A DNA stretch of 64,000 nt from Echinicola pacifica DSM 19836 (lineage in GTDB: Bacteria > Bacteroidota > Bacteroidia > Cytophagales > Cyclobacteriaceae). A model generated the notes under the pieces. It made no database searches. It saw only the letters and a list, made by a program, of their open reading frames with translations, and was not told where the DNA came from. Made by a program: the position numbers and the translations under genes. Of the stretch, positions 2,103 to 60,382 are shown one piece after another (within the stretch, counting starts at the first letter, position 1; each line of letters begins with the position of its first letter). Where the stretch lies: NCBI RefSeq assembly GCF_000373245.1, contig NZ_KB890738.1:594824-658823 (forward strand), given 5' to 3'.

Positions 2103-2948
2103 TCAAAAGGCTGAGATAGTTTCTTTCACTGCCTCCATTAGCCACATAGGCGTGGAGGTAGCGCCGCAAATTCCCACCCGGCTTTGCTTGCCAAACCAGT
2201 CTTTATTTACCTGCTCCACGTTGGAGACAAAGTGGGTGTGGGGATTCTCCCTTTTGCAGACTTCATACAGCGCCTTGCCATTGGACGATTTGCTTCCACT
2301 CACAAAGATCACTATATCATAGTTTTTAGCAAAATTACGTAATTCTTTATCTCTATTGGATACCTGGCGGCAGATGGTATCATGAGTATTTACCTCAATT
2401 CCATTTTCCTTAAGCAGCCGATTGATTTCATAAAAATGATCTGTACTCTTTGTAGTTTGGCTGAACAAGGTGATCTGCGGGGGCATTGTGGATAAGTCCA
2501 ACTCATCAATATGCTGAAAAACCACGGCCTCTTGATTGGTCTGTCCCAGTAATCCTGCCACTTCTGCGTGCCCATGTTTACCATAGATGTATATTTTCTC
2601 CTTCCTGTCAAAGGCATTTTTGATCCTATGCTGCAGCTTCAGTACCACGGGGCAGCTGGCATCCACGAGGGTCAGGTTATTTTCGATTGCGAGCTTATAG
2701 GTGGAAGGAGGCTCGCCATGCGCTCGAATCAGCACTTTGGCATCCTTCAGCTGCGCCAACTCCTCATGATTGATGATTTTCAGGCCCTTGGCCACGAGCC
2801 TCTTTACCTCCTCATCATTGTGGACGATGTCCCCAAGACAGTATAGCATCTCCTCCTCATCCAAGATGTCCTCCGCCATCTCGATGGCATATACCACGCC
2901 AAAGCAGAAGCCAGAATGTCGGTCTATATCTATCTGAAGATCATTCAT
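2103..2948 (-). CDS. ispH: 4-hydroxy-3-methylbut-2-enyl diphosphate reductase (IspH/LytB)
   Basis: IspH carries out the last step of the MEP pathway, reducing HMBPP to IPP and DMAPP with an oxygen-sensitive iron-sulfur cluster. Three cluster-ligand cysteines are visible: SGFCFGV near residue 14, DASCPVV near 99, and ICRQVSNR near 193. The length (281 residues) is normal. It begins 6 bases after the lycopene cyclase stop, so the operon couples the C5 precursor supply to pigment synthesis. An exact TTATCCACA 9-mer lies inside the gene at 2487-2495. Confidence 0.95.
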   Translation of the reverse strand: MNDLQIDIDRHSGFCFGVVYAIEMAEDILDEEEMLYCLGDIVHNDEEVKRLVAKGLKIINHEELAQLKDAKVLIRAHGEPPSTYKLAIENNLTLVDASCPVVLKLQHRIKNAFDRKEKIYIYGKHGHAEVAGLLGQTNQEAVVFQHIDELDLSTMPPQITLFSQTTKSTDHFYEINRLLKENGIEVNTHDTICRQVSNRDKELRNFAKNYDIVIFVSGSKSSNGKALYEVCKRENPHTHFVSNVEQVNKDWFGKQSRVGICGATSTPMWLMEAVKETISAF

Positions 2949-2954
2949 ATACTA

Positions 2955-3665
2955 TCAACTAAGTGAAGGCCTTAATGTTTTCCTACCAAGGAAATATTCA
3001 TATAAGGATATATTCATCAGCATCATGGCTAATGAATAAAACACATCCTCCACCGGTATGGTAAATATCCTAAAGCCGAGGTTTTCGGCATCGTCATACC
3101 AGACCACCGGCTCAGGAGTAAATGCTCCCGTTAAAGCACCGTTAACCAATAAAAATGGTATTAGATGGATTAAATAAAACAGGTAAAATCGCTGAAGAAA
3201 TCTCGTTTTGAAAAACCAAAGATGCGTCAGGATTACCAAAGCAGTCACTGCAAAATTGACCGAGGTGTACCATAAGTCATAATGGATTACCGCCATCGCC
3301 AGCAGCAGTAGGGTTAACAGTTGGCTGATGTATTTGGCGATTGTTTCTGAGATAGGAGCTTTCAGCTCATAATATTTGAGCACCTCATAGATGAAAATAC
3401 AGGAATAGGGTACAGTTATAAAAAACAAGCATTCCTCTAAAGGCAAGGGACCAAGGTAAATACCGCTAAGGTACTGCGCATTGAATCCCCAGACGCCCAT
3501 CTGAGTAAACTCATAATCCCAAATCAAGAAGAAGACGGCGGTCAGAAGAATAGCAGGCCAAAGAGCAAACCATTTCTTAAAGTAAGAAACCTTCTTGTCA
3601 AATGACCATAAAAAAGGGAGAATAATGGTGCCTATATTTAAAGCTAAATAAAGATATTTTTCCAT
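2955..3665 (-). CDS. crtYcd: Membrane lycopene beta-cyclase (fused CrtYc-CrtYd type)
   Basis: This is a polytopic membrane protein of 236 residues with about seven hydrophobic segments. Two internally repeated cyclase half-domains each carry an acidic motif: PLPLEE near residue 76 and PVEDVFYSL near 211. Such acidic residues are known to be essential in the CrtYcYd and fungal CarRA cyclase family, which converts lycopene to beta-carotene. It sits 8 bases after crtB. The flavoprotein CrtY type is excluded because there is no Rossmann motif. Confidence 0.88.
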   Translation of the reverse strand: MEKYLYLALNIGTIILPFLWSFDKKVSYFKKWFALWPAILLTAVFFLIWDYEFTQMGVWGFNAQYLSGIYLGPLPLEECLFFITVPYSCIFIYEVLKYYELKAPISETIAKYISQLLTLLLLAMAVIHYDLWYTSVNFAVTALVILTHLWFFKTRFLQRFYLFYLIHLIPFLLVNGALTGAFTPEPVVWYDDAENLGFRIFTIPVEDVFYSLAMMLMNISLYEYFLGRKTLRPSLS

Positions 3666-3673
3666 GATTTCAC

Positions 3674-4516
3674 CTATTCGATACCCAATTTGGAGCCAAA
3701 GTAAATGCTCATAAGTAGGGATAGTTTTTTGATATTAGGGATGCGTACCCGCTGATCAGAGATGGTTTCTGGTTGTAGTTTTCTGATTTTGGCAAACAGA
3801 TTCTGGTAATAAATATAGGCAATCTTCACCCCGATTCTGGCGCCTTTCGGCAGTTGCTTTATTCCCAGATAGGCGGCATCGAAGTCCCTTTGGATATCTT
3901 CTTCTATGCACCGCTTAGCTTCCACGCTGAACGCACTATACTCCAGTCCCGGGAAGTACACCCTTCCCCGATCTTCATAATCGCTCTTGATATCCCGCAG
4001 AAAATTTACTTTTTGAAATGCCGAACCCAATTTGCATGCAGGAGCTTTCAACTGCTCGTACTGCGCCTCATTTCCTTCACAGAATACTCTTAAGCACATC
4101 AAGCCCACTACCTCTGCGGAGCCATAGATATATTCTGTGTATTTGGTGTCATTATACGTGCTGAAATCCAGGTCCATGGCCATGCTATCCATGAACGAAT
4201 CGATCAGGTTTCGCTCGATTCCATATTGATGTACCACCATTTGGAAGGCATGAAGGATAGGGTTTAGGCTGATTTTTTGGTCTATGGCCTCATAGGTATC
4301 CGCTCTGAATTTGCTTAGCAAATGGCTTTTGTCATGGCTATGAAAAGTGTCCACGATCTCATCAGCGAAGCGCACAAAGCCATATATTCCATAGATGGGG
4401 GAATGAAATTTCTTCTCCATCACCTTGATTCCCAGACTAAAGGAGGTGCTATAGCGCTGTGTTACCAGCCTGCTGCACTCCAAGGCCGTGCTATGGTATA
4501 ATTTTAATGGATTCAT
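3674..4516 (-). CDS. crtB: Phytoene synthase CrtB
   Basis: CrtB condenses two geranylgeranyl diphosphates to phytoene. The two aspartate-rich Mg2+/diphosphate motifs are present: RFADEIVDTFH near residue 49 and NFLRDIKSDYEDRGRVYFP near 171. The length of 280 residues is usual for the squalene/phytoene synthase family. The start overlaps the end of crtI by four bases (ATGA), typical of translational coupling. No GGPP synthase gene is visible in the window, so the substrate must come from a gene elsewhere. Confidence 0.95.
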   Translation of the reverse strand: MNPLKLYHSTALECSRLVTQRYSTSFSLGIKVMEKKFHSPIYGIYGFVRFADEIVDTFHSHDKSHLLSKFRADTYEAIDQKISLNPILHAFQMVVHQYGIERNLIDSFMDSMAMDLDFSTYNDTKYTEYIYGSAEVVGLMCLRVFCEGNEAQYEQLKAPACKLGSAFQKVNFLRDIKSDYEDRGRVYFPGLEYSAFSVEAKRCIEEDIQRDFDAAYLGIKQLPKGARIGVKIAYIYYQNLFAKIRKLQPETISDQRVRIPNIKKLSLLMSIYFGSKLGIE

Positions 4517-6018
4517 AGGGTTGATTTTTCGGTAGATGCCGGCTGAAACTGACGGAGGATTTCCTGCGCTACCACCTGTCCAGAAATCAAAGAAGGCGGA
4601 ACTCCAGGCCCCGGAATAGTCAATTGGCCGGTATAATAAAAGTTGTCAAGATTCTTATTTCGAATTTTGGGCTTCAGCATAGCCGTCTGTCCCAGGGTGT
4701 TGGCCAGGCCGTAAGCATTGCCTTTATAAGAGTTATAATCCTGAATAAAATCTCTATGTGCATAACTGCGCTTATAGGATACCTTATCAGCGATGGATTG
4801 GCCTGTGAGCTTCTCCAGCCGAGACATTACTTTTTGGTAATATTCCTCCCGCCGAGCCTCGCTATCTTCAAGTCCTGGTGCAAGGGGAATGAGTATAAAT
4901 AGATTTTCTTTGCCCTCTGGAGCCACCGAAGGGTCCGTTTTTGAGGGACAGCATACGTAAAACAGGGGTTTTTCGGGCCATCCTGCTTCCTCATAGATGA
5001 CATGCGCATGAGGCTCTAAGGCTTCGTCAAAGAAGAGATTATGATGCTCCAAGCCTTCGATTTTGGCATCCACGCCCAGATAAAATAGCAAGCTGGAAGG
5101 AGCAAGGGTCCTCTTATCCCAGTAGGATTCAGAGTAGTTTTCATAGCCTGGGGGCAATAATGCCGCATCTACATGATGGTAATCTGCCCCAGCTACCACG
5201 ATATCTGCGGGGATTACGCGGCCATCTTTCAGGTAAGCGGCGTTGACTTTGCGGTCTGTAATCTTAAAATGCGATACATCCGCCTTATATAGAAATTTCA
5301 CCCCTTTTTCCTCCGCCAAACTCACCATTCCCTTGATGATTTCGTGCATTCCCCCCATAGGATACCAGGTACCAAGTTCCATATCGGCATAATTCATAAG
5401 GCTATACATAGCTGGAATTTTATCCGCTGTCTGGCCTAGGAATAAGACTGGAAATTCCATGATTCTGACCAGCTTATCTTCAGTGAAAGACTGGCGAACA
5501 TGCTTTTTCATAGATTGGAAAAGATCGAGCTTGATCAGGTCATTAAAAATATTAGGCTGGGCAAATTCCCAAATGGTATGGCAGGGTTTATACACCCACT
5601 CTTTGATTCCCACCTCGTATTTTCTTTTGGCTTGCGCCAAAAACGTATCGAGCTTCACCGCACTGCCAGGCTGAAGCCGTTCAAATAAGGCTCGTAGTGC
5701 TAGTGGATCCGCAGGCAAAGAAAGCTCATCCTCCTTACCAAAATATACTTTATATGATGGATCAAGACGTTTCAGCTGATAGTAATCCTCTGGCTTTTTG
5801 TCGAATTTGGCAAAATAATCTTCAAAAATATCAGGCATCCAATACCAGCTCGGCCCCATATCAAACGTAAAACCATTCGCCTCAAACTTCCTTGCTCTTC
5901 CTCCGGGGCTGTCATTTTTCTCTAATACCTTCACCTCAAAACCCTGACTCGCCAGGGAAGTGGCTGCGGCTATTCCAGCAAACCCTGCTCCGATTACTAT
6001 GACTTCCCCTTTATGCAT
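4513..6018 (-). CDS. crtI: Phytoene desaturase CrtI
   Basis: This is an FAD-dependent desaturase that converts phytoene to lycopene. The N-terminal dinucleotide-binding fold is clear: VIGAGFAGIAAATSLAS at residues 8-24, the acidic residue in VLEKN, then SPGGRARKFEANGF. The C terminus has the family signature around YYTGQLTIPGPGVPPSLISG, residues about 462-481. The length (501 residues) is standard. The gene starts one base after the sigma-factor stop codon, so sigma factor and desaturase share one transcript. Confidence 0.95.
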   Translation of the reverse strand: MHKGEVIVIGAGFAGIAAATSLASQGFEVKVLEKNDSPGGRARKFEANGFTFDMGPSWYWMPDIFEDYFAKFDKKPEDYYQLKRLDPSYKVYFGKEDELSLPADPLALRALFERLQPGSAVKLDTFLAQAKRKYEVGIKEWVYKPCHTIWEFAQPNIFNDLIKLDLFQSMKKHVRQSFTEDKLVRIMEFPVLFLGQTADKIPAMYSLMNYADMELGTWYPMGGMHEIIKGMVSLAEEKGVKFLYKADVSHFKITDRKVNAAYLKDGRVIPADIVVAGADYHHVDAALLPPGYENYSESYWDKRTLAPSSLLFYLGVDAKIEGLEHHNLFFDEALEPHAHVIYEEAGWPEKPLFYVCCPSKTDPSVAPEGKENLFILIPLAPGLEDSEARREEYYQKVMSRLEKLTGQSIADKVSYKRSYAHRDFIQDYNSYKGNAYGLANTLGQTAMLKPKIRNKNLDNFYYTGQLTIPGPGVPPSLISGQVVAQEILRQFQPASTEKSTL

Positions 6019-6019
6019 A

Positions 6020-6529
6020 TCAATCTGCTTTATAAACGCTCAACTGCTCCTTAAGGCTTTTTCTGGCAAGGTGAATTCGGTTTTTCACTGTACCGATAGG
6101 CAGGTTTAGCTCCTCCGCTATCTCGTAATATTTATAGCCCTCATGGTGCATCAGAAAAGGTACTTTATAGCAGTCCTCCAGCAGACTGATGCGCTGCCAT
6201 ATATCGCTCATGGCGAAAGAGCCAAAGACGCCATTTTCTATTAATACTTCCCCGGAATTTAAAAAATGCATATTCTCCGTGGTATCCACAAAAGTCGCCC
6301 TTCTCTTAATCTGCTGATAACGAGTGATAAACGTATTTTTCATTATGGTATATAACCAAGCTTTAAGATTGGTACCATCCGAAAACTTGTCCCGGTTCGT
6401 AAATGCCTTCAACATCGTGTCTTGCATTAGGTCATTGGCATCATCAGAGTCCTTCGTCAAACGCATAGCAAATGGACGTAGGGACTCAGAGTGTTCATTA
6501 AGCGAGTAACTGAATTCTTTAGTAGTCAT
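6020..6529 (-). CDS. ECF-type RNA polymerase sigma factor of the carotenoid operon
   Basis: This small sigma-70 protein has about 170 residues from the ATG at 6529. An upstream in-frame TTG at 6553 would lie on the -7 promoter element and is unlikely. Region 2 is seen in DDANDLMQDTMLKAF and NLKAWLYTIMKNTFI; region 4 is seen in HEGYKYYEIAEELNLPIGTVKNRIHLARKSL near the C terminus. It is the first gene of the pigment operon and probably activates carotenoid synthesis in response to a stimulus such as light or oxidative stress (inference from CarQ-like systems elsewhere). No anti-sigma gene is adjacent, so control may act through the operator array in front of it. Confidence 0.9.
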   Translation of the reverse strand: MTTKEFSYSLNEHSESLRPFAMRLTKDSDDANDLMQDTMLKAFTNRDKFSDGTNLKAWLYTIMKNTFITRYQQIKRRATFVDTTENMHFLNSGEVLIENGVFGSFAMSDIWQRISLLEDCYKVPFLMHHEGYKYYEIAEELNLPIGTVKNRIHLARKSLKEQLSVYKAD

Positions 6530-6540
6530 GATTTCGGCTA

Positions 6541-6617
6541 TTTGTTTAATCAAAAGTAGTTATGATTAAACAAAGTACAAACTTTTGTTTACTCTTTTTT
6601 TCTTTTAATTAAACAAA
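6541..6617. promoter_or_regulatory. Four-half-site operator array over the carotenoid promoter
   Basis: TTTGTTTAATCA at 6541-6552 and TGATTAAACAAA at 6563-6574 form a perfect 12-bp inverted repeat with a 10-bp spacer, covering the -7 element. A second, degenerate pair follows: TTTGTTTA at 6585-6592 and TAATTAAACAAA at 6606-6617 (11 of 12 matches to the second arm). The half-sites start at 6541, 6563, 6585 and 6606, about two helical turns apart and in alternating orientation. This looks like a binding array for a multimeric repressor or activator, for instance a MerR/LitR-like protein (inference). Confidence 0.65.
6551..6581 (-). promoter_or_regulatory. Bacteroidota-type promoter of the carotenoid operon
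   Basis: On the minus strand, TTTG (6581-6578) and TACTTTTG (6558-6551) are separated by exactly 19 bases. This is a full match to the known Bacteroidota primary-sigma promoter, TTTG N19 TAnnTTTG. The -7 element ends 21 bases before the ATG at 6529, leaving a very short leader. Confidence 0.8.
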
Positions 6618-7112
6618 CGGTAATAAATGACCTTAAACAGGTAATTAAAGACTGTTTTTTGGAAAAAGTAATTTTCCTCAACTATGCAGCTGAGCTATGA
6701 AAATGGTCTAAATGAGTGATTTAGGAGAAAATAAAAGGATATTCAGAGAAGAAATGGCTTGAAACAGCCTATTTCCGCTTTGGTAAAAAATATAAGGTAA
6801 ACAGAAAAATAATGAATCTATTCACTGTATCCTGCAGGAAGGAGCTTAAGGGATCATGATAGGCTTGGTTCCCTTTTTTATTGCTGCATTAGCAGCAAAG
6901 GATTGTTTTTTTAAAGCCAAAAGATCAAAGCAAGGATGGAAATACCTACTCTAGGTTTAGGCGGGAATCTACAATCATGATAAACTTCTTACCAGGGAAA
7001 TGATAGTTATATAATTATAGACCTAAACCACATGCCCGAAGAAAGACCTCAGCAGTCACGATGCCCCGATCTGGGTTTAAAAATTAATATGCATAATAGC
7101 TTTCACAGCCAA
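6618..7112. other. Intergenic stretch, no gene seen
   Basis: About 500 AT-rich bases lie between the sigma-factor promoter region and the next minus-strand stop codon. I see no convincing ORF, RNA fold or repeat. Confidence 0.5.
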
Positions 7113-7574
7113 TCAATTTCTAATGGCCTCGGAGAAAAAGTTTCTCTTCCACAATTCCTTACTTGAAAAGTTTACTGCATCCAAAATCTCATAGATATTC
7201 TTAGGAACAAAGGGGCTAATTACAAGGCAGAAATGCCCTGATCGATCCTGCATGACTTCCAGTTCGTAGTGAGTCTTGAGCTGCAAGATGGCACGGGGAA
7301 AAAATATCTGTACGTGTGTAGAGGTCAAATCCTGCTGAAAGCCGAATTTTTTCTTCTTATGATGAAAATGCTTTAAGATGGCCCGTTCCTGGAAATCCTT
7401 GTCGGCAAGGGTAAGAGTGGATTGCTGCCATATTTTGGGATTGAATTGATGGCTAAGCTGCATATTGCCCAGCCTGAAAGTGTATTTGATGAGCTGATCC
7501 ACCTGAATCGTAACTGGCAGGTTATTCTTGATGGATAGAAATTTCCACAGGTTATCCATTTTTCTAACATCCAT
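7113..7574 (-). CDS. Hypothetical soluble protein
   Basis: I do not recognise this 153-residue protein. There is no signal peptide or membrane segment. It has a basic central patch (KHFHHKKKKFGFQQD, about residues 68-82) and ends in a mixed alpha/beta pattern. It begins 37 bases after the stop of the gene at 7612-8196 and probably belongs to a three-gene operon with it and the gene at 8224-8685. The ATG at 7574 is the first in frame. Confidence 0.7.
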   Translation of the reverse strand: MDVRKMDNLWKFLSIKNNLPVTIQVDQLIKYTFRLGNMQLSHQFNPKIWQQSTLTLADKDFQERAILKHFHHKKKKFGFQQDLTSTHVQIFFPRAILQLKTHYELEVMQDRSGHFCLVISPFVPKNIYEILDAVNFSSKELWKRNFFSEAIRN

Positions 7575-7611
7575 AATCTTGTATTTTGGGTTGTTTTGCT
7601 ATTCTTGGCGG

Positions 7612-8196
7612 CTATTTTACTAATTCTCTATAATCTACCGCCGTCTTGATCAAGGCTTGCTTGGCATCATCGCTGGTCCATATCGGAAACCAACTTTCTA
7701 CCACCTGCACCTCGATGACTTCGCGATCCTGCAGGCTCATTAGCTTATTTACAAGCAGCTCATGACTTCGCCGATCACCATTCAATATAGAAAAATGTTC
7801 ATTAGTACCCGCATCAGACTGCCGTCTTAGGCGCACCGTGTCCAGCAATTCCAAGGCCGGAGAAAGCTCCGCATAGATATACGCTTTATCCTTTATACGA
7901 TTTACGATCAAGCTTAGGTTTATAAAAATGCTGTCTGCTGAGCCTGAGCGGTCTTTGTGCCGATAAAGTAGCAGCTTGGCTTCGGCTTGCCTTTCGATAT
8001 CATAGTGGATCTGTCGCACATTCTGAAAATAGATTAGACTGGAAGCCTTAAAGGAATTTTCGTCCAACATTCCTGAATTATTGGATTTCCGCTCATCGAA
8101 AAACGATAAAATCAGCACCAGGCTTACCGAAATAAGGCCAAAAAGCTTTATGATTTTTATCAATTCGGGGGTAAAAACTTCCTTTTTTGCAGACAT
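7612..8196 (-). CDS. Hypothetical membrane-anchored protein
   Basis: This 194-residue protein is not recognised. After a short cytoplasmic N terminus (SAKKEVFTPELIK) comes one hydrophobic anchor (IIKLFGLISVSLVLILSFF, residues about 14-32), then a periplasmic domain of about 160 residues with alternating polar and hydrophobic strands and no cysteines. A type II signal-anchor topology is likely. It is the middle gene of the putative three-gene operon, starting 27 bases after the acidic-N-terminus gene. Confidence 0.72.
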   Translation of the reverse strand: MSAKKEVFTPELIKIIKLFGLISVSLVLILSFFDERKSNNSGMLDENSFKASSLIYFQNVRQIHYDIERQAEAKLLLYRHKDRSGSADSIFINLSLIVNRIKDKAYIYAELSPALELLDTVRLRRQSDAGTNEHFSILNGDRRSHELLVNKLMSLQDREVIEVQVVESWFPIWTSDDAKQALIKTAVDYRELVK

Positions 8197-8223
8197 GGGC
8201 CTTTTAGGCTTTAGGGGAAACGC

Positions 8224-8685
8224 TTAGTTCAGGAACAATCCCCAGCCATCATCATATTTATGAGAAGGGTCAAATCCCTTTACCCATTCCACAAAGAGCA
8301 ATTTAAATTCCTCCAAGGCATCGCGCAATAGCTCAAGATGCTCCTCAGCATGGGTATCTACCATAGGCACAGAGTAAGTCATGCTGTTCAAATGACGCGC
8401 ATGCACTTTCATAAAGACGGCGTTTTCCATTTTCAGGATATAATCATCCACTCCCTCGGCCCCGCTAAATTTCCCACAGATCAGCGTCGCATCTTCGATC
8501 ATGAATGTGCCATACATATCTTTTGACATCTCATCCAAGGCTCCCACCATGGCTTCAGTAAGGTGCAGAATATCCTTTGCCTTCTGCATGACAGGATGAT
8601 TTTCTATCCTCTCTTGTTCACGTCGGTACCCCTCTCCATCGTCCTCTTCATCCCAACTATCATCGTCCTCGAAATCATTCCACAT
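8224..8685 (-). CDS. Hypothetical protein with acidic N terminus
   Basis: This 153-residue protein of unknown family begins with an intensely acidic tract: most of residues 3-18 are Asp or Glu (NDFEDDDSWDEEDDGEGY). A helical region at about 35-60 (KDILHLTEAMVGALDEM) and a second near 115-135 (HLELLRDALEEFKLLFVEWV) follow. There is no signal peptide or membrane segment. It is the first gene of the putative operon running to 7113. Its upstream boundary is the terminator at 8714-8736. Confidence 0.72.
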   Translation of the reverse strand: MWNDFEDDDSWDEEDDGEGYRREQERIENHPVMQKAKDILHLTEAMVGALDEMSKDMYGTFMIEDATLICGKFSGAEGVDDYILKMENAVFMKVHARHLNSMTYSVPMVDTHAEEHLELLRDALEEFKLLFVEWVKGFDPSHKYDDGWGLFLN

Positions 8686-8713
8686 ATACTCCTCAATTTT
8701 TATGAATAAAAAA

Positions 8714-8736
8714 AAGCGATCATTAAATGATCGCTT
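8714..8736 (-). terminator. Rho-independent terminator of the DUF3127 gene
   Basis: AAGCGATCATT and AATGATCGCTT form an 11-bp hairpin followed on the minus strand by a run of T. It lies just after the stop codon at 8768 and before the next gene's start at 8685. Confidence 0.85.
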
Positions 8737-8767
8737 AAATATAAACTTTTTGATAAATCTACCTCAA

Positions 8768-9121: not shown

Positions 9122-9252
9122 ATCGTTATTTAATTTTTGTTTCGGCTTGAATCTACGAAGGTAATCAATCACCCTTTTTATTAAAAAGTAAAAGACCATT
9201 TAATAGCAGAATTTTAAATTCCACCATCCCTTTTACTTGATTTTCAAGGAAA

Positions 9253-9936: not shown

Positions 9937-10026
9937 GAATTATCAAAATAGATCATAATGATAGATAATTACTCCTCCATTACACAATTTCTCAGGAGGA
10001 ATTATAATCAAAAAAATGGTGAGTCA

Positions 10027-53362: not shown

Positions 53363-53379
53363 TATAATCTACCCAAAAA

Positions 53380-54861
53380 ATGATTTCTCACTTTCATCCT
53401 GGAGCCTACTGTTTGATTGCACTACTTTCCCTGAGCCTACTATCCTGCCAGGAAAAAGTCAGTCCAAAACCGAATATTCTATTCATAGCAATAGACGATT
53501 TACGACCAGAATTGGGAGCTTATGGAAAAGAATATGTCCACTCTCCAACTATGGATGCGATTGCAGCGGAGGGAAGTTTATTTACAAATCACTATGTAAC
53601 TGTGCCCACCTGTGGCGCATCCAGGTATAATCTGCTCACTGGAATCTTGCCTAAAACCAAAACGGAGATTGGAAACGATGCGGCGGTAAAACTCATATCG
53701 AATAAATCAAGTAAGGAAAGACCCAAAACCTTCCTGAATGAATTAAGGGAAAATGGTTATTATACGGTAGGCATTGGTAAAATATCTCATCATCCCGATG
53801 GCTATGTTTATGGCTACCAAGAACCAAAAAGCGATATTATAGAGCTTCCGGAAAGTTGGGATGAGATGCTTTTTGACTCAGGGAAATGGGGAACAGGTCA
53901 TAATGCTTTTTTTGGCTATGCAGATGGAAGCAATAGAAACGATAAGAACAAGCAGGTAAAGCCTTACGAGTCTACGGATGTAGAGGACGAGGGATATCCT
54001 GATGGACTTACGGCAAATTTGGCGGTGCAGAAACTTAAGGAATTAAAGCAAAAAGGGCAGCCATTCTTTCTGGGACTGGGATTTTTTAAGCCTCATTTGC
54101 CTTTTACAGCACCCAAGAAGTACTGGGACCTATATAATGAAGGGGATATTCCCCTAGCTCCATTTCCGGCGATTCCAGAAAACAGCTCAAAATCCAGCCT
54201 TCAGGAAAGCGGCGAATTTAACCAATATAGTTTAGGGGAAGAAAAAGCAGGACTAGATTCGGCCATGTCTGATGCTTATTCCCGCAAAATTAGGCATGGC
54301 TATTTGGCCGCAATCAGTTATATAGATGCCCAAATAGGAAAAGTTATTCACAGTTTGGAAGAGCAGGGATTGGCAGAAAATACCATCATCGTACTCTGGG
54401 GAGATCACGGCTGGCATCTGGGAGATCAACTCACCTGGGGAAAGCATACCGTTTTTGAAAGTGCCCTCAAGAGCGTCCTCATCATCAAACGGCCTGGGCA
54501 TAAAGGGGAAAAAATTGATCAGATCGTAAGTACCACAGATATCTACCCCACCATCATGGAAATGCTGCAGCTAGAATCCAGTGAGCAGCTCGATGGCCAG
54601 AGCATGGTATCCCTGATGGATGACCCCAGCACCTCCCAATGGAGAAATACCGCATATAGTTATTTCAGAAATGGCATCTCGCTCCGTGTTCCGGACTATA
54701 GAATGACCCGTTATTTCCGTAAAATCAGCCCTGAAGTGGAGCTATATGATTTAAAAAACGATCCAAATGAAACGATTAATATAGCGGATAAAGCTCCCGA
54801 ACAGGTAAAGCGCCTCGATCCGATCTGGCAAAAAGGCAATACAGGCATTTTTCAAGACTAA
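53380..54861 (+). CDS. Sulfatase lipoprotein, iduronate-2-sulfatase-like
   Basis: The 493-residue protein carries a lipoprotein signal (YCLIALLSLSLLSC, Cys23). The active-site signature has the formylglycine cysteine in TVPTCGASRYNLLTG near residue 80. The metal site is in NILFIAIDDLRPELGAYG, and the C-terminal part has LWGDHGWHLGDQLTWGKHT near 343. It needs an anaerobic or FGE-type maturase, not visible here. It probably desulfates a polysaccharide, such as marine sulfated glycans. No SusCD pair is adjacent. Confidence 0.92.
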   Translation: MISHFHPGAYCLIALLSLSLLSCQEKVSPKPNILFIAIDDLRPELGAYGKEYVHSPTMDAIAAEGSLFTNHYVTVPTCGASRYNLLTGILPKTKTEIGNDAAVKLISNKSSKERPKTFLNELRENGYYTVGIGKISHHPDGYVYGYQEPKSDIIELPESWDEMLFDSGKWGTGHNAFFGYADGSNRNDKNKQVKPYESTDVEDEGYPDGLTANLAVQKLKELKQKGQPFFLGLGFFKPHLPFTAPKKYWDLYNEGDIPLAPFPAIPENSSKSSLQESGEFNQYSLGEEKAGLDSAMSDAYSRKIRHGYLAAISYIDAQIGKVIHSLEEQGLAENTIIVLWGDHGWHLGDQLTWGKHTVFESALKSVLIIKRPGHKGEKIDQIVSTTDIYPTIMEMLQLESSEQLDGQSMVSLMDDPSTSQWRNTAYSYFRNGISLRVPDYRMTRYFRKISPEVELYDLKNDPNETINIADKAPEQVKRLDPIWQKGNTGIFQD

Positions 54862-54994
54862 AGGTAAATTAATGCGCTAGTAAATTAAATACCAGCCTAC
54901 TGATAGAGCCTTGGCGTATTACAGACTTTAATAATTGGATTTGTCAAATAGCAATGTCCGCTTAGCAATCCATTTTGCTTTCAGCAAAACCTCC

Positions 54995-55002
54995 TATATT
55001 TG
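54995..55002 (+). promoter_or_regulatory. -7 element four bases before the MutS-like start
   Basis: TATATTTG matches TAnnTTTG exactly and ends at 55002; the ATG is at 55007. A TTTG lies 17 bases upstream, shorter than the optimal 19. The mRNA would be leaderless or nearly so. Confidence 0.5.
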
Positions 55003-55006
55003 ACTT

Positions 55007-56776
55007 ATGAAAATTGACCTTCGTACTGATTCACCTAAGGAAGATTTGGTGATTTGTAAACGCAAAATGGCTAGCTTATCAATAGCGAGGCTATTTGTCT
55101 TTTTAGCACTTGGAGCCACTTTTATCATTGGGGTGACAGAAATCCGCCCGATATTATTACTTTTTGTACCCTTATCGGCTTTGTTTATCTACCTGATTAT
55201 CCTATATAATGCCCAGAAAGATCGGGCTGCATTCCTAAATTCATTATTGGAAATGGAAAAAGAAAGCTCTTTTCGTCAGGAGAGAATGCTAGATAGTTTG
55301 GATCAGGGAAATGAATTTATGGACAAAAACCATCCATATTGTAATGATTTAGACTTATTTGGTTCCCATTCTTTATTTCAACTGATCAATCATACCGTAA
55401 ATAAAGGAGGCCGGAACCTGCTTGCGCAATGGATGAAAGCAGCTACAGAACCTGTTTTAGCAGAAAAACGATTTTCAGCCATCAAAGAACTGGCAGGAAA
55501 AAACCTATTTGTGCGCAATTTTGAAGCTATAGGAAGGTCATTTCTGAAAGAGGAAAAAACAAAATCCCAATTCTATTCCTGGCTGGAGGAGCCCATCGCA
55601 TGGAAATCCTGGTACTGGCTTCCCATGATCCTAGGACCTGTGGGAGGAATCTCTCTTCTTTCAGCCTGGTTATTCACAGGGATTAATGGGAATTTGATTT
55701 CTCTATGGATTCTAATTGGCATTCCTTTATTAGGCTTAATATTCAAACCCTTATTACAGGCCGCCAAATCAATGCCCAATGAGGGAGATCTCAAAACCTA
55801 TGCGCTTTGGACCAGCGAGATCGAAAAGCTAAATTTCCACCACCCTTATAATAAATCCCTGCAAGCGCCCTTTGTCCAGGAAGACTATAAGGCTTCGGAG
55901 GCTTTAAAGTTCCTGGAACAGCGCAGTTTTATGATCCAAAATAGGATCAATTTGATGTATTTGATTTTCAATCTACTCTTTTGGGTGGATTTTTGGGTTC
56001 TGTTTGGTATAGAGAAGTGGAAGAAAAAATATGCCCATCAGGTGCATAATTGGGAAAGTAACTTTGCTGAATGGCAGGTGATGAGCTCTTTAGCGAGCTT
56101 CACTAATGAGGAGGGGATTAGCTGTGCAATAAGCTGGAATAGCAAAGGAACCATTCATGTGGAAAACCTAAAGCATCCACTCATAAATCCATCAAAATGC
56201 ATAGGAAACGACTTTTCCCTGTCTGAAACTCAGCAATTGTCGCTGCTTACCGGCTCGAATATGAGTGGCAAGACCACCTTCATGCGAACCCTAGGTATCA
56301 ATATGGTCTTGGCCAATCTCGGCCTGAGCCCTTTTGCAGAGAAATTTGAATGCAGCAGTTTCCAATTGTTTACTAGCATGAGGAATTCCGATAATTTAGG
56401 GGAAAGTGTAAGTTCCTTCTATGCGGAATTAGCTAGGATCAAAAACCTGCTGGACCGCGTGGAGAATCAAGAACCCATCTTATTCCTCCTGGATGAAATC
56501 CTGAAAGGCACCAATACAGTAGATCGCATCATGGGAAGTGAGGCGCTAATCCGTCAGCTAGTAAAAACACCCAGTAAAGGAATCATCTCTACACACGATA
56601 TAGAATTGGCCGAATTAAGTGATAAAATCAATGGATTAGTCAACTTTAGCTTCCATAGTGAGATAAAAGACAAAGAAATATTGTTTGATTACAAAATAAA
56701 AAAAGGGCCTTGTCCGAGCTTTAATGCCCACAAACTCATGGAGTTAATGGGTATCCGCTTTGAAACATTTACCTAA
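55007..56776 (+). CDS. Membrane-bound MutS-like ATPase
   Basis: The 589-residue protein has two N-terminal helices (SIARLFVFLALGATFIIGVT, ILLLFVPLSALFIYLIILY) and a further pair near 200-250 before the MutS core. The C-terminal ATPase has Walker A LTGSNMSGKTTFMRTLG near 414, Walker B LFLLDEILKGTN near 492 and the His of GIISTHDIEL near 526. Mismatch-recognition domain I of true MutS is absent, so this belongs to the MutS-related membrane subgroup of unknown role, not to standard mismatch repair. Confidence 0.88.
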   Translation: MKIDLRTDSPKEDLVICKRKMASLSIARLFVFLALGATFIIGVTEIRPILLLFVPLSALFIYLIILYNAQKDRAAFLNSLLEMEKESSFRQERMLDSLDQGNEFMDKNHPYCNDLDLFGSHSLFQLINHTVNKGGRNLLAQWMKAATEPVLAEKRFSAIKELAGKNLFVRNFEAIGRSFLKEEKTKSQFYSWLEEPIAWKSWYWLPMILGPVGGISLLSAWLFTGINGNLISLWILIGIPLLGLIFKPLLQAAKSMPNEGDLKTYALWTSEIEKLNFHHPYNKSLQAPFVQEDYKASEALKFLEQRSFMIQNRINLMYLIFNLLFWVDFWVLFGIEKWKKKYAHQVHNWESNFAEWQVMSSLASFTNEEGISCAISWNSKGTIHVENLKHPLINPSKCIGNDFSLSETQQLSLLTGSNMSGKTTFMRTLGINMVLANLGLSPFAEKFECSSFQLFTSMRNSDNLGESVSSFYAELARIKNLLDRVENQEPILFLLDEILKGTNTVDRIMGSEALIRQLVKTPSKGIISTHDIELAELSDKINGLVNFSFHSEIKDKEILFDYKIKKGPCPSFNAHKLMELMGIRFETFT

Positions 56777-56849
56777 TACTGGTATTTTTGGCATAGCGAT
56801 TGATTATTAAAGAATTATAAACCAATTGTTTCACTAAACAACCAATGTT

Positions 56850-57002
56850 ATGAATTCTTTATTGTATTTGATCGCAGTGATATTATTAATCGGATGGGTA
56901 TTAGGAGCCTTTGTATATAGTGTAGGCGGACTCATTCACATTCTTTTGGTATTGGCAATTATCGCTATTTTGTTCAGACTTATAGGCGGTCGTTCTGTCT
57001 AG
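56850..57002 (+). CDS. Small lmo0937-family membrane protein
   Basis: This 50-residue protein was read directly because it is short. It has two hydrophobic helices: NSLLYLIAVILLIGWVLGAF and LIHILLVLAIIAILFRLIGG, ending GGRSV. This matches the lmo0937 family of tiny membrane proteins seen in many bacteria, often stress-induced. A strong terminator follows 22 bases later. Function unknown. Confidence 0.85.
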   Translation: MNSLLYLIAVILLIGWVLGAFVYSVGGLIHILLVLAIIAILFRLIGGRSV

Positions 57003-57024
57003 TACAAATGTTAAATATCGAAAA

Positions 57025-57054
57025 AAACGCTATCCTCACTAAAGGATAGCGTTT
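57025..57054 (+). terminator. Terminator after the small membrane protein gene
   Basis: AAACGCTATCC and GGATAGCGTTT form an 11-bp hairpin with an 8-base loop, followed by three more T. Confidence 0.9.
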
Positions 57055-57096
57055 TTTGTTTTAATTTTGGGCTATCTCATTCTAAAAAGCAAGAAA

Positions 57097-58236
57097 GTGC
57101 AAGATAATTATCAGCAAAAGACCTTGGGAATACTTGGTGGTGGCCAGTTAGGCCGAATGGTTATTCAGTCCGCCATCAACTATAATATTGATATCCACAT
57201 TTTGGATCCCGATGCCAATGCGCCCTGCAAGACGATTTGCCAGCAATTCACTCATGGAAAGCTCACGGATTTTGATACCGTATATGCTTTTGGCCAGCAA
57301 TGCGATGTGATCACAATAGAAATAGAAAGTGTCAATACGGAAGCCTTGGAGAAGTTGGAGCAGGAAGGCAAGAAGGTATTTCCTCAGGCCAGCATTATTC
57401 GATTAATTCAGGATAAGCGCGCACAGAAGCAATTTTATAAAGAAAATAATATCCCTACTGCTGATTTTATCCTAACGGATAATAAAGATGCAGTGAAGGC
57501 CAATGCCGATTTTCTTCCTGCAGTAAATAAACTAGGCAGAGATGGCTATGATGGAAGAGGAGTACAGATTCTTCGTAATGTAGCAGACTTGGAATTGGCA
57601 TTTGAAGCTCCCAGCTTATTGGAAAAGCTGATTGATTTTGAAACGGAGATATCAGTAATCGTTTCAAGGAATGAAAAAGGGGAAATGTCCTGCTTTCCAC
57701 CAGTGGAATGTTCTTTTCATCCAACTGCCAACTTGGTAGAATTTTTATTTGCGCCAGCGCAAATTTCCTCTGATATCGCAAATAAGGCCTTGGAAGTGGC
57801 CGAAGACATCATAGTAAAATTAGGCATGGTGGGTATATTGGCCGTGGAGATGTTTGTGACGAAGGAGGGAGAAATATTAGTCAATGAAATAGCTCCAAGA
57901 CCACATAATAGCGGTCATCATACGATAGAAGCGAATTATACCAGCCAATTTGAACAGCATTTGCGTAGTGTAATGGGCATGCCTTTAGGGAAAACAGGCC
58001 TTAGAGGACCTGCAGCCATGGTAAATCTCCTTGGAGAAGATGGATATATTGGTGACGCCTTGGTCGAGGGAATGGATGAAGCGATGAAAGAAAAGGGGAT
58101 ATATATACACCTTTATGGTAAAAAAACCACCAAACCTTTCCGAAAAATGGGTCATGTGACTATTTTGGAGGAAAGTGTCGAAGCCTTAAAAGCTAAGGCG
58201 ATGAAAATCAAGGAAATCATTAAGATAAAAGCATAA
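57097..58236 (+). CDS. purK: N5-carboxyaminoimidazole ribonucleotide synthase PurK
   Basis: PurK uses ATP and bicarbonate to convert AIR to N5-CAIR in purine synthesis. The frame has no ATG near the conserved N terminus. A GTG at 57097 gives QDNYQQKTLGILGGGQLGRM; the TTG at 57067 is nearer the hairpin and less likely. ATP-grasp features include VNKLGRDGYDGRGVQI, EKLIDFETEISVIVSR and ILVNEIAPRPHNSGHHTIEA. Length (about 379) is normal. purE follows after three bases. Confidence 0.93.
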   Translation: MQDNYQQKTLGILGGGQLGRMVIQSAINYNIDIHILDPDANAPCKTICQQFTHGKLTDFDTVYAFGQQCDVITIEIESVNTEALEKLEQEGKKVFPQASIIRLIQDKRAQKQFYKENNIPTADFILTDNKDAVKANADFLPAVNKLGRDGYDGRGVQILRNVADLELAFEAPSLLEKLIDFETEISVIVSRNEKGEMSCFPPVECSFHPTANLVEFLFAPAQISSDIANKALEVAEDIIVKLGMVGILAVEMFVTKEGEILVNEIAPRPHNSGHHTIEANYTSQFEQHLRSVMGMPLGKTGLRGPAAMVNLLGEDGYIGDALVEGMDEAMKEKGIYIHLYGKKTTKPFRKMGHVTILEESVEALKAKAMKIKEIIKIKA

Positions 58237-58239
58237 ATT

Positions 58240-58755
58240 ATGAGCAAACAGGTAGGAATCATTATGGGTAGTAAATCTGATCTTCCCATTATGTCTGAAG
58301 CCGCCAAAGCCCTGGAAGAATTGGGTGTAGGTTACGAGCTGACCATCGTATCAGCGCATAGGACTCCGCATAAGATGATCGATTATGCAGAAAGTGCCCG
58401 CCAAAGAGGCGTGAAAGTGATAATTGCTGGCGCCGGTGGGGCAGCTCATCTCCCTGGAATGGTCGCATCTCTCACTTCATTGCCGGTAATCGGTGTACCT
58501 ATAAAATCCTCCAATAGCATAGATGGCTGGGACAGCATACTGTCTATCCTGCAGATGCCCGCTGGAATTCCCGTGGCAACTGTGGCATTAAACGGCTCCA
58601 AAAATGCTGGAATTCTTGCCGCATCTATTATCGGGGCCTTTGATCCTAAAGTAGCCGAAAATATGGAAACTTTCAAAAAGGAATTGAAAGCCAAGGTGGA
58701 AGAAAATGCCAGAGATGTTGAAATCAAAGGATGGAAAGATACCTTGGATGATTAA
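58240..58755 (+). CDS. purE: N5-CAIR mutase PurE (class I)
   Basis: The 171-residue protein isomerises N5-CAIR to CAIR. Class I signatures are complete: GIIMGSKSDLPIM near residue 6, SAHRTPHKM near 44 and IAGAGGAAHLPGMVASLT near 70, with SNSIDGWDSILSILQMPAGI following. It starts three bases after purK and is followed by a strong terminator, so purK-purE form a two-gene operon. Confidence 0.96.
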   Translation: MSKQVGIIMGSKSDLPIMSEAAKALEELGVGYELTIVSAHRTPHKMIDYAESARQRGVKVIIAGAGGAAHLPGMVASLTSLPVIGVPIKSSNSIDGWDSILSILQMPAGIPVATVALNGSKNAGILAASIIGAFDPKVAENMETFKKELKAKVEENARDVEIKGWKDTLDD

Positions 58756-58778
58756 GTCCAAACAAATTTATAAATAGC

Positions 58779-58819
58779 AAAAAAGGCATAAAATCATCAG
58801 TTGATTTTATGCCTTTTTT
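58779..58819 (+). terminator. Terminator of purKE
   Basis: An 18-bp perfect arm pair (AAAAAAGGCATAAAATCA with its complement) encloses a 5-base loop and ends in six T. Confidence 0.93.
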
Positions 58820-58945
58820 GATTCAATTCTATAAGCTGATATACCAGGTCTTAGTTATTGGATAAATCGATTACTATTTTTTTAAGGATAAATCAGCCGA
58901 AGAAATATTCAAAAAACCAGCTCCCTAAGTTTTCTAAGCCTAGGA

Positions 58946-60382
58946 TTACCTCGCTGAACTGTCGCGGTCCTTCAACTCATTGAGTTTGTCCATCAACAAT
59001 TGCCAAGCTTCTTGAAGGTGTCTTTCTTCCACATCCGTCTGTGCAATCACCCAGCGAATAACATAAGTTTCATTGAGCTTGGTATGCGTAAAGAAAGCCT
59101 CACCCGTATCATTTACTGCTTTCATCCATGCTGCATTAAGTATATTAAGCTGCTCAAGCTTCATATACTTATCCACATACCGGAAACATATGACATTCAA
59201 CTCATTAGGTGCAATAATTTCAATATTTTCATGCCTCTCCATCCAATTTTTAACCTTTTTGGCTAATTGCAAATGGTTTCGGAGCTTAGCTCTAATTCCA
59301 GAAACGCCATAAGTCCTGATCACAAACCAAAGTTTAAGCGCCCGAAATCTTCTACCCAACTGAATTCCCCAGTCTCTATAATTTCGAACTTCTTCATCAT
59401 GAGAGGTTTTCAGATATTCAGGGTTAATGGCGAAGGTATTTATTAATGCTGAAGGGTCCTTGATAAACATTATCGAACAATCGAAATTAGTAAACATCCA
59501 TTTGTGTGGATTAAATACAAAACTGTCGGCCATTTCCTGCCCTCTGATCAAGTCACTGCATTCTGGTAATAATAAGGCCGTACCTGCATAGGCGGCATCG
59601 ATATGGTGCCAAACAGAAAATTCAGCACAAATTTTCCCTATATCCTCGATGGAATCCAAGGCGCAAGAGCCTGTCGTTCCTAAGGCAGAAACTACGGCCA
59701 TTGGGATATAGCCTTGCTCTATATCTTCCTGTATAGCCTGCTTTAAAGCTTGAGTATTCATGGAAAAATCGGCATTTACGGGTATTTTAACCAAATTACT
59801 TATCCCCAAACCTGAAATTTTTACAGCTTTATCCACAGAAGAGTGCGCTTCGGTAGAGCAATACACTCGTAGTGGTGAGGAAGGAAAGATCCCTCGGTCA
59901 TTGACGGAAAATTGGGTATATTTTTCCCGGGCAGTGAGTAGGGCACATAAGGTGGCTGTAGAGGCAGTATCCTGAATCACTCCAGTCCATTCTGGTAATA
60001 AACCCATGGATTTCCGTAACCATTCAGTTACTTTAGTTTCTAGTTCGGTGGCTGCTGGCGAAGTAAGCCAGGACATACACTGAGCACCTAAGGTGGCCAT
60101 CAGCATTTCTGCCAAAATAGATGGGGCAGAATTATTCGCTGGAAAATAGCCAAAGAATTTAGGGTGCTGCCAATGGGTCATTCCAGGCAAAATCACTTTT
60201 TCAAAATCCTTGAATATATCTTCAAAATTTTCAGGATGTTCAGGCGCATGATCAGGCAATTTTTGGGCGATCTCGCCAGGAGAGACTTTTGGACTAACGG
60301 AATGGATTTCTTTTTTTTCTAAATAATCCGCCATCCAATCCACAAGGGAATGAGCATTTTTTCTAAATTCAGAATAATTCAT
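58946..60382 (-). CDS. PLP-dependent group II decarboxylase (aromatic-amino-acid type)
   Basis: The 478-residue protein resembles aromatic-L-amino-acid and tyrosine/tryptophan decarboxylases. The substrate entry stretch GMTHWQHPKFFGYFPANNSA is near 72, the PLP-contacting DTASTATLCALL near 138, and the Lys Schiff-base motif NPHKWMFTNFDCS near 291. The His at the PLP ring is in YCSTEAHSSVDK near 170. It would release an aromatic amine such as tyramine or dopamine. It is monocistronic. Two exact TTATCCACA sites are inside (59169, 59829). Confidence 0.92.
   Translation of the reverse strand: MNYSEFRKNAHSLVDWMADYLEKKEIHSVSPKVSPGEIAQKLPDHAPEHPENFEDIFKDFEKVILPGMTHWQHPKFFGYFPANNSAPSILAEMLMATLGAQCMSWLTSPAATELETKVTEWLRKSMGLLPEWTGVIQDTASTATLCALLTAREKYTQFSVNDRGIFPSSPLRVYCSTEAHSSVDKAVKISGLGISNLVKIPVNADFSMNTQALKQAIQEDIEQGYIPMAVVSALGTTGSCALDSIEDIGKICAEFSVWHHIDAAYAGTALLLPECSDLIRGQEMADSFVFNPHKWMFTNFDCSIMFIKDPSALINTFAINPEYLKTSHDEEVRNYRDWGIQLGRRFRALKLWFVIRTYGVSGIRAKLRNHLQLAKKVKNWMERHENIEIIAPNELNVICFRYVDKYMKLEQLNILNAAWMKAVNDTGEAFFTHTKLNETYVIRWVIAQTDVEERHLQEAWQLLMDKLNELKDRDSSAR

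What the first reader, a model, noticed from the sequence alone, without database searches (positions are those of the whole stretch)
2487..59837. Extreme over-representation of the 9-mer TTATCCACA across the window
By manual scan I count at least 23 exact copies in 64 kb on both strands together. With A/T near 57% the expectation is about 0.7 (0.285^6 x 0.215^3 x 128,000). The 9-mer equals the high-affinity DnaA box. The copies are not restricted to promoters: 14 lie inside unrelated genes and 9 in roughly 10 kb of intergenic DNA. Flanking bases often extend to TGTGGATAAGT. None occur from 11.5 to 23.8 kb or from 25.9 to 32.1 kb, both dominated by uptake and exported-protein genes, so the density is uneven. 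Ten of the first twelve read TGTGGATAA on the plus strand, and nine of the remaining eleven read TTATCCACA. Possible meanings are DnaA titration or regulation, a chromosome-organising motif, or an unknown binding protein.
Basis: partly seen in the sequence, partly recalled or inferred. Interest (0 to 1): 0.78.

Follow-up and report, generated by a model that had tools for sequence, protein, structure and literature searches.

The report
DnaA-site belt beside replication origin
In this marine bacterium and most of its close relatives, a roughly 55,000-base stretch on one side of the chromosome's replication start point is studded with likely binding words for the start protein DnaA, and evolution keeps these words even inside unrelated genes, so it may work as a sponge that helps time DNA replication.

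Summary
That stretch lies 11-75 kb from the predicted oriC, which is 6.7 kb beyond the window edge near mnmG, on the side that carries a parS-like array. Eight of nine fetched congeners have the same one-sided belt (21-38 exact boxes at -66 to -9 kb); of six other genera fetched the counts are 35, 16, 8, 5, 3 and 0. Gene content of the belt differs between species. TTATCCACA is the most enriched real 9-mer there. In orthologous genes inside the belt with identical peptides 408 of 490 boxes are unchanged against 111.5 expected; mismatched words of the untolerated class show no excess (20 of 98 against 21.2). This points to purifying selection for single DnaA sites. Most likely an origin-linked DnaA titration reservoir (about 0.6); a DnaA/parS segregation domain is the main rival. 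Origin-proximal box enrichment is known in E. coli; the compact, one-sided, codon-level conserved belt seems new. Binding and function are untested.

The parts
1..59837 (.). Part of the box-rich belt that lies in the window. The belt runs C1:590150-654660 (two more exact boxes lie 3.5 and 4.7 kb left of the window); predicted oriC lies right of the window at window coordinates 70659-71056 and a parS-like array at 65939-66147.
2487..2495 (-). exact DnaA box, in ORF 2103-2948
10226..10234 (+). exact DnaA box, in ORF 10027-10845
11153..11161 (+). exact DnaA box, in small ORF 11109-11399
11225..11233 (-). exact DnaA box, in small ORF 11109-11399
11433..11441 (-). exact DnaA box, intergenic
23836..23844 (-). 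exact DnaA box, intergenic
25305..25313 (-). exact DnaA box, in ORF 24946-25635
25869..25877 (-). exact DnaA box, intergenic
32101..32109 (-). exact DnaA box, intergenic
33424..33432 (-). exact DnaA box, in ORF 33245-33667
34074..34082 (-). exact DnaA box, in radA (TIGR00416) ORF 34011-35387
35598..35606 (-). exact DnaA box, intergenic between radA and polA
36926..36934 (+). exact DnaA box, in polA ORF 35614-38430
37214..37222 (+). exact DnaA box, in polA ORF 35614-38430
39753..39761 (+). exact DnaA box, in ORF 39239-40078
40565..40573 (+). exact DnaA box, in ORF 40461-40874
42399..42407 (-). exact DnaA box, intergenic
43604..43612 (+). exact DnaA box, in MatE transporter ORF 43440-44864
48927..48935 (-). 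exact DnaA box, intergenic
49732..49740 (+). exact DnaA box, intergenic
53235..53243 (+). exact DnaA box, intergenic
59169..59177 (+). exact DnaA box, in PLP decarboxylase ORF 58946-60382
59829..59837 (+). exact DnaA box, in PLP decarboxylase ORF 58946-60382

Best explanation
The copies are single high-affinity binding sites for the replication initiator DnaA. They form a belt about 55-65 kb long that starts about 10-20 kb from oriC on the parS/mnmG side and is kept by natural selection. The belt most likely works as an origin-linked titration reservoir: before initiation DnaA first fills these consensus sites, while oriC itself holds only mismatched boxes; when enough DnaA has built up the origin fires, and soon after (a few minutes at fork speeds known from other bacteria, recalled) the belt is doubled, so that free DnaA falls and a second firing is delayed. 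Shown here by sequence: the belt, its place beside the predicted oriC, its conservation, its word specificity and the 9-bp footprint of selection. Inferred: that DnaA binds these sites in the cell, that consensus sites bind tighter than the oriC boxes, and that titration is the advantage selected.
For: Position: a cluster of 7-10 words within one mismatch in 450 bp in 9 of 9 fetched congeners, beside mnmG, with an AT-rich stretch at the same spot in 15 of 15 fetched genomes (0.86-0.94 A+T over 50 bp), taken as oriC. 8 of 9 congeners carry 21-38 exact boxes at -66 to -9 kb and 0-7 at +9 to +66 kb. Against 1000 permuted words that share no 6-mer with the box: 221 observed in nine congeners, mean 5.5, largest 32. 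Whole chromosome of G003: 23 in the belt against 1.06 expected from the rest, P 6e-23; densest 57-kb stretch beyond 150 kb has 5. Specificity: 216 inside against 27.9 expected, top real 9-mer; TTTTCCACA, ATATCCACA, TTATGCACA enriched, TTCTCCACA and TTATCGACA not. Selection: orthologous genes both inside, identical peptide, exact boxes 408 of 490 unchanged against 111.5 expected; tolerated variants 230 of 318 against 71.9; untolerated 20 of 98 against 21.2; the excess covers positions 1-9 with flanks near zero. Position-dependence: at under 0.70 nucleotide identity 64 of 170 boxes kept when the ortholog is inside the belt interval, 6 of 50 when outside; of 65 ortholog groups with members in and out, 16 have more boxes inside, 3 outside, 46 tie. 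Coding 236, intergenic 52 boxes over 15 genomes, 0.336 and 0.396 per kb: place in gene does not matter, as titration predicts. No exact box within 600 bp of the predicted oriC of the 8 belt-bearing congeners. One protein with a DnaA C-terminal domain; the DnaA-family search gave only two further weak hits of equal score, one of which I scanned and which is an IS21 IstB helper, so no Hda was seen.
Against: Titration does not predict one-sidedness: both arms next to oriC are copied at the same time, yet the other arm holds only 0-4 exact boxes from 0 to +50 kb in nine congeners. It also does not need individual sites to be kept for long, and many are. G002, sister of the other eight on the tree, has only 5 boxes there; G049 has none in 48 kb and G053 has 3 there but 10 on the other arm; seven other genera read by position list have 0-3 exact boxes on that side. 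So the belt is not needed for replication control in the family. G036 has a belt and one exact box at oriC, against the idea that belt species keep oriC free of exact boxes. The evidence is comparative only; no DnaA binding data exist here.
Confidence: 0.6

Rival explanations
1. The belt is a segregation or folding domain: DnaA bound along the parS-side flank marks that side of the origin, interacts with ParA/ParB/SMC or membrane, and couples initiation to origin movement.
For: A parS-like array (2-5 copies) lies at -4.7 to -4.9 kb in 15 of 15 fetched genomes, on the belt side, and the belt starts beyond it; one-sidedness is otherwise unexplained. DnaA acting at parS in Caulobacter is described in passages of PMC6399470.
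Against: parS is in the same place in genomes with no or a weak belt (G049, G002, G059). In Caulobacter the boxes lie in parS; here the 9 kb on either side of oriC, which include parS, hold 0 or 1 exact box in each of 15 genomes. Boxes also lie farther out on the other arm: G001 at about 97-108 and 151-160 kb, G003 16 at +50 to +150 kb, G004 8 at +46 to +80 kb.
Confidence: 0.2
2. DnaA acts as transcription factor on genes of the belt.
For: 9 of 23 window copies are intergenic; DnaA is a known regulator in other bacteria (recalled).
Against: Density in coding and intergenic DNA is alike over 15 genomes; the genes in the belt differ between species, and box-rich G036 and G062 share none with the belt of G000 by reciprocal best hits.
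Confidence: 0.06
3. A protein other than DnaA reads the same 9-mer, for example a nucleoid or division-site factor.
For: No binding data; origin-proximal sites are also typical of Noc-like factors (recalled). Some strongly enriched or conserved words lie outside the consensus TTWTNCACA: ATATCCACA, TTATCCACG, TTAACCACA, while TTATTCACA and TTATACACA, inside it, are kept only about twice as often as expected.
Against: Most of the variant spectrum agrees with the DnaA consensus TTWTNCACA as used in PMC12371093; only one protein with a DnaA C-terminal domain in the genome; the same word family builds the predicted oriC.
Confidence: 0.08
4. Neutral: base composition, mutation bias or spread of a repeat.
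For: The belt interval is much rearranged between species.
Against: Permuted words 5.5 against 221; no shared flanks to the eye in the listing of the 23 copies beyond a frequent AC before TTATCCACA; G+C of belt and other arm alike; excess conservation confined to DnaA-compatible words and to nine positions.
Confidence: 0.02

Closest known systems
Origin-proximal DnaA-box enrichment of E. coli and Salmonella (PMC12371093; outline with abstract, sections 6 and 13 and passages seen)
   Same: DnaA boxes denser near oriC, over-represented beyond composition; proposed to serve titration.
   Different: [quoted passage not shown] Here about 55-65 kb, one-sided, about 20-fold over the rest of the chromosome in G003, with codon-level conservation of single sites. 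E. coli boxes are said to prefer the lagging strand; belt boxes do so mildly (132 of 221 in nine congeners), less than far boxes of G003 (56 of 78).
Bacillus subtilis DnaA-box clusters (DBCs; passages of the review PMC5295017 seen, primary paper not read)
   Same: DnaA boxes outside oriC whose joint removal gives early initiation, read as a matter of free DnaA.
   Different: Six discrete clusters; here dispersed single boxes about 1.6 kb apart on average, mostly in coding DNA.
E. coli datA and DARS (passages of PMC5295017 seen)
   Same: Non-oriC DnaA boxes that tune DnaA activity.
   Different: datA is about 1 kb with five boxes and IHF; the belt is neither short nor noncoding. A conserved three- to four-box intergenic locus at +29 to +76 kb looks more like this kind.
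Caulobacter DnaA boxes at parS (passages of PMC6399470 seen)
   Same: DnaA sites on the parS side of the origin.
   Different: Boxes there lie in parS; here the stretch of 9 kb on either side of oriC, parS included, holds at most one exact box per genome.

Membership tests
DnaA boxes | match to TTATCCACA or TTWTNCACA | tested here: met
   23 of 23 exact; several one-mismatch words behave alike, some of them outside TTWTNCACA
DnaA boxes | a DnaA with canonical domain IV in the same cell | tested here: met
   one PF08299 protein; its recognition stretch reads GGRDHSTVIHA (that this is canonical is recalled)
DnaA boxes | bound by DnaA | not testable with these tools
   no binding data
E. coli type origin-proximal enrichment | density peak near oriC against composition and uniform nulls | tested here: met
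E. coli type origin-proximal enrichment | lagging-strand preference of the enriched boxes | tested here: inconclusive
   132 of 221 in nine congeners, 164 of 288 in 15 genomes; far boxes of G003 56 of 78
E. coli type origin-proximal enrichment | enrichment on both sides of oriC | tested here: not met
   221 on the mnmG side, 31 on the other, nine congeners, 57 kb each; the other side is still above the permuted mean of 0.45-0.78 per genome
oriC | dense boxes within some hundred bases plus unwinding region | tested here: not met
   belt boxes 1.6 kb apart on average; predicted oriC found elsewhere
datA / DARS | short noncoding locus with several boxes | tested here: not met
   236 of 288 belt boxes coding
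B. subtilis DnaA-box clusters | discrete clusters | tested here: not met
   257 gaps in ten box-rich genomes, CV 1.18, near random spacing with a slight excess of gaps under 200 bp (0.148 against 0.114)
Titration reservoir (function) | loss of sites advances or multiplies initiation | not testable with these tools
   needs the recoding experiment
Genome-wide skewed words (Chi, KOPS, HIP1 type; recalled) | enriched over the whole chromosome | tested here: not met
   G003 beyond 150 kb 14.5 per Mb against 11.2 for the reversed word

The most novel reading that the evidence does not exclude
A polarised origin domain: DnaA decorates one flank of the origin, the centromere side, as a selected, tens-of-kilobases-wide landing strip that gives the two sides of the origin different identities and ties DnaA level to both initiation and segregation. 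It would be a new kind of chromosomal domain written into the synonymous sites of whatever genes happen to lie there.
Probability: 0.2. Interest if true: 0.88.

Novelty: new variant of a known kind. Interest (0 to 1): 0.68.

Why it matters
Whether DnaA titration on the chromosome really times replication was proposed decades ago, and the abstract of PMC12371093 says that experimental evidence was still lacking. Here the reservoir, if that is what it is, is concentrated in about 1% of the chromosome, is present in eight of nine species of a genus and nearly missing in their sister, and could be recoded largely with synonymous changes. It also suggests that a regional chromosome function can impose selection on synonymous codons of unrelated genes according to where they lie.

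Tried and rejected
Orientation flip in the window as a sign of the origin: rejected, the flip near 36 kb is not at the predicted oriC and is weak after correction for choosing the cut. The three-box locus at C1:719.4 kb as oriC: rejected, the mnmG-linked cluster with near-boxes and AT-rich stretch is the better candidate and is present in 15 of 15 fetched genomes, in G062 with 4 near-boxes only. GC skew minimum in G000 is near C1:650 kb and in G002 near 1.65 Mb, about 15-20 kb from the predicted oriC; in G001 it coincides. Belt tied to polA-radA: rejected as general cause, G004, G036 and G062 have belts without those genes in the fetched stretch; but polA-radA does carry boxes also where the belt is weak (G002, where the 5 boxes lie by radA-polA, and G059, 2 of 5). 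Second own clusters on contig C13 as copies of belt genes: the C13 stretches gave no match over 500 bases to the fetched origin regions of congeners; unexplained.

Limits of the tests: ortholog pairs are not independent (nine species; tree, rooting by midpoint). Per-pair results are: of the listed pairs five have no kept box (G036-G049, G009-G062, G007-G062, G010-G062, G004-G059), the others exceed expectation in at least one direction. Boxes are kept above expectation outside the belt too, less strongly (10 of 23 against 5.5 with same peptide), and at above 0.76 identity 5 of 10 are kept when the ortholog is outside. Genes were called as longest ORFs. Zone limits -66 to -9 kb were chosen; the other-genus and whole-chromosome tests used the same limits. 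In one search, where permutations that are shifted copies of the box were not excluded, the best permuted word reached 10-23 on the belt side in belt-bearing genomes; one search excludes them. Genomes G005 and G006 of the genus were not fetched (9 of 11 were). Belt-side counts for G022, G023, G027, G038, G040, G046, G066 (1, 2, 2, 0, 0, 3, 0) and G055 (5, plus 7 at -75 to -93 kb) rest on printed position lists and an oriC place inferred from mnmG, not on their sequence; the G023 list is cut at 100 of 112 and the G055 list is partial. Genus Echinicola is inferred from family, genome sizes and the carotenoid gene order given in PMC8683446 (passages), not from a named record. That G053 and G049 are Arthrospiribacter ruber and Indibacter alkaliphilus is inferred from equal contig lengths only.

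Print searches for earlier reports. Only the top 5-20 papers of each were listed, with titles and the starts of abstracts; none of those describes such a belt in Bacteroidota. Subscription papers are not held.
Full report
OBSERVATION. The window holds 23 exact TTATCCACA on both strands, with 0.65 expected from dinucleotide shuffles and 1.02 from a third-order Markov model; it heads the over-represented 9-mers of the window.

REGIONAL, NOT GENOME-WIDE. The genome (5.44 Mb, 22 contigs) has 126 copies against 51 of the reversed word; 25 of the 126 lie in C1:590150-654660, and the window is C1:594824-658823 (which prints the first 100 places). In 400 kb of C1 around it 34 copies occur, 25 of them in that stretch.

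WHERE IT IS. A cluster of ten words within one mismatch of the DnaA box lies at window coordinates 70659-71056, 6.7 kb beyond the right edge of the window. mnmG (TIGR00136) lies a few kb from it. Such a cluster lies in the same place in nine congeners (7-10 words) and six other genera (4-9 words), with an AT-rich stretch at the same spot in all 15. I take it as oriC; this is a prediction. Five parS-like words lie at window coordinates 65939-66147, between ybeY and mnmG, and 2-5 such words lie at -4.7 to -4.9 kb in 15 of 15 genomes; a few words with up to three mismatches occur elsewhere, and G009 has one more at -0.5 kb. So the order is oriC, mnmG, parS, then the box belt. In G000 the belt runs from 11 to 75 kb from oriC.

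CONSERVED IN THE GENUS. With oriC at 0 and mnmG on the plus strand, exact boxes at -66 to -9 kb number 22, 22, 5, 23, 24, 31, 21, 38, 35 in G000, G001, G002, G003, G004, G007, G008, G009, G010; at +9 to +66 kb 6, 2, 4, 1, 7, 6, 2, 0, 3; within 9 kb of oriC 0, 0, 1, 1, 0, 0, 0, 0, 0. Two of the eleven genomes of the genus (G005, G006) were not fetched. Over 1000 permuted words the nine-genome total is 5.5 on average and 32 at most, against 221. In G003, read over the whole chromosome, the belt has 23 where 1.06 is expected from the rest, a further 9 lie at -100 to -66 kb and 16 at +50 to +150 kb, and beyond 150 kb the density is 14.5 per Mb against 11.2 per Mb for the reversed word. The other arm is therefore not free of boxes; G001 has clusters at about 97-108 and 151-160 kb on that side, and part of the first is orthologous to belt DNA of G004, G007, G009 and G010.

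OTHER GENERA. Of six further genera fetched, the same interval holds 35 (G036), 16 (G062), 8 (G050), 5 (G059), 3 of 43.5 kb (G053, which has 10 on the other arm) and 0 of 48 kb (G049). Position lists of seven more genera show 0-3 exact boxes there; an eighth, G055, shows 5 and 7 more at -75 to -93 kb in a partial list. On a tree of seven origin-linked proteins (midpoint root) G002 is sister to the other eight congeners, and G036 and G062 lie in another clade. The belt thus expanded within the genus after G002 split off, or was lost there, and arose or persisted separately elsewhere.

NOT TIED TO PARTICULAR GENES. Only the block within about 9 kb of oriC is syntenic over the 15 genomes; beyond it gene content is scrambled, and G036 and G062 share no belt gene with G000 by reciprocal best hits. 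polA-radA carries boxes even where the belt is weak (G002, G059), so some sites may be older than the belt. Of 65 ortholog groups with members both inside and outside the interval among nine congeners, 16 carry more boxes inside, 3 more outside and 46 tie (sign test p 0.004).

THE WORD IS THE DnaA WORD. Comparing 456 kb of belt with 1154 kb of control DNA from the same eight genomes, TTATCCACA is the top real 9-mer (216 seen, 27.9 expected; a run of N in one genome ranks above it). One-mismatch words ATATCCACA, TTTTCCACA, TTATCCACG, TTATGCACA and TTAACCACA are 4-5 times enriched, TTATCAACA 3.3 times, while TTCTCCACA, TTATCGACA, TTACCCACA and TTATCCATA are not enriched. The fit to the published E. 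coli consensus TTWTNCACA is good but not perfect: ATATCCACA, TTATCCACG and TTAACCACA lie outside it. TTACCCACA, not among the belt's favoured words, is a regular member of the oriC cluster, in keeping with weaker oriC sites. The genome has one protein with a DnaA C-terminal domain, a 475-aa DnaA; the two weak further hits of the DnaA-family search have equal scores, and the one scanned is an IS21 IstB helper, so no Hda was seen.

SELECTION ON SINGLE SITES. In orthologous genes lying inside the belt in both of two congeners, 468 of 811 alignable boxes are unchanged against 107.4 expected from other 9-mers of the same gene and codon phase. Where the peptide is identical, 408 of 490 are unchanged against 111.5; tolerated one-mismatch words 230 of 318 against 71.9; untolerated ones 20 of 98 against 21.2; boxes outside in both 10 of 23 against 5.5. 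The excess covers positions 1 to 9; flanking positions lie within about 0.05 of expectation. At nucleotide identity below 0.70, 64 of 170 boxes are kept if the ortholog is inside the belt and 6 of 50 if outside; at 0.70-0.76, 85 of 196 and 0 of 9; above 0.76, 306 of 402 and 5 of 10 (pairs with G002 as partner counted apart). The pairs are not independent, but single pairs agree, for example G000-G001 5 of 8 against 0.5 and G003-G007 6 of 10 against 0.5; five distant pairs with few boxes have none kept. This is the strongest result: the boxes are maintained as 9-bp sites, at the cost of synonymous freedom, and mainly while their gene lies in the belt.

ANATOMY. Over 15 genomes 236 belt boxes are coding and 52 intergenic, 0.336 and 0.396 per kb. 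Spacing is near random (257 gaps, mean 1.65 kb, CV 1.18). Strand use is 132 to 89 in favour of the lagging-strand sequence in nine congeners, weaker than for far boxes of G003 (56 of 78), so orientation does not seem to be what is selected. No exact box lies within 600 bp of the predicted oriC of the eight belt-bearing congeners, but belt-bearing G036 has one, whereas G046 has four and G038 two at the inferred oriC.

MECHANISM. Dispersed single sites, indifferent to strand, gene and promoter, concentrated beside an origin with mismatched boxes, are what an initiator-titration reservoir should look like: it fills before the origin and doubles soon after firing. One-sidedness is the part that titration does not explain. 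The parS array on the same side makes a segregation or folding role the main rival, but parS is in place in genomes with no or weak belts too.

KNOWN WORK. PMC12371093 (outline with abstract, sections 6 and 13, passages) reports a broad box-density rise near oriC in E. coli and Salmonella and single-molecule support for titration; a search of its main text for 'bacteroid' gave no hit. PMC5295017 (passages) tells of six B. subtilis box clusters whose joint removal advances initiation, and of datA. PMC6399470 (passages) reviews DnaA acting at Caulobacter parS. The listings of searches show no report of a one-sided conserved belt. I therefore call it a new variant of a known kind.

Noticed in passing
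C1:719439-719544 (window coordinates 124616-124721, outside the window): Intergenic locus with three or four exact DnaA boxes (spacing 0/20/97, or 0/77/87/97 in relatives) seen in 6 of 15 fetched genomes at +29 to +76 kb from oriC; in G000 beside an SSF transporter gene; G003 has a similar triple (0/20/95) at about +123 kb in the position list. Looks like a datA/DARS-type element.
   Followed up: partly
G000 C13:21872-32649 (L042) and C13:106925-111332 (L043): Two further dense groups of exact boxes, 10 in 10.8 kb and 5 in 4.4 kb, on another contig; the first over ordinary genes (HrpB-type helicase, tRNA methyltransferase, amidohydrolases); no match over 500 bases to fetched congener origin regions. 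Unexplained.
   Followed up: partly
window 1328-6553, minus strand: Carotenoid gene order sigma factor-crtI-crtB-cyclase-ispH-ketolase, as described for Echinicola in PMC8683446 (gene names by inspection and recall, passages).
   Followed up: partly
window coordinates 65939-66147 (2 kb beyond the window): Array of five parS-like words between ybeY and mnmG, 4.8 kb from the predicted oriC, with counterparts in 15 of 15 fetched genomes; no ParB motif hit in the scanned stretches of G000, G001 and G002.
   Followed up: partly
predicted oriC regions of congeners versus G046, G038: The eight belt-bearing congeners have only mismatched boxes in oriC, some other genera without a belt have exact ones; might be a trade-off between origin and reservoir affinity, though G036 has both.
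   Followed up: partly
whole genome of G023: 112 exact boxes against 51 of the reversed word, spread over the chromosome with no belt in the 100 printed places: a second way of having many boxes.
   Followed up: no
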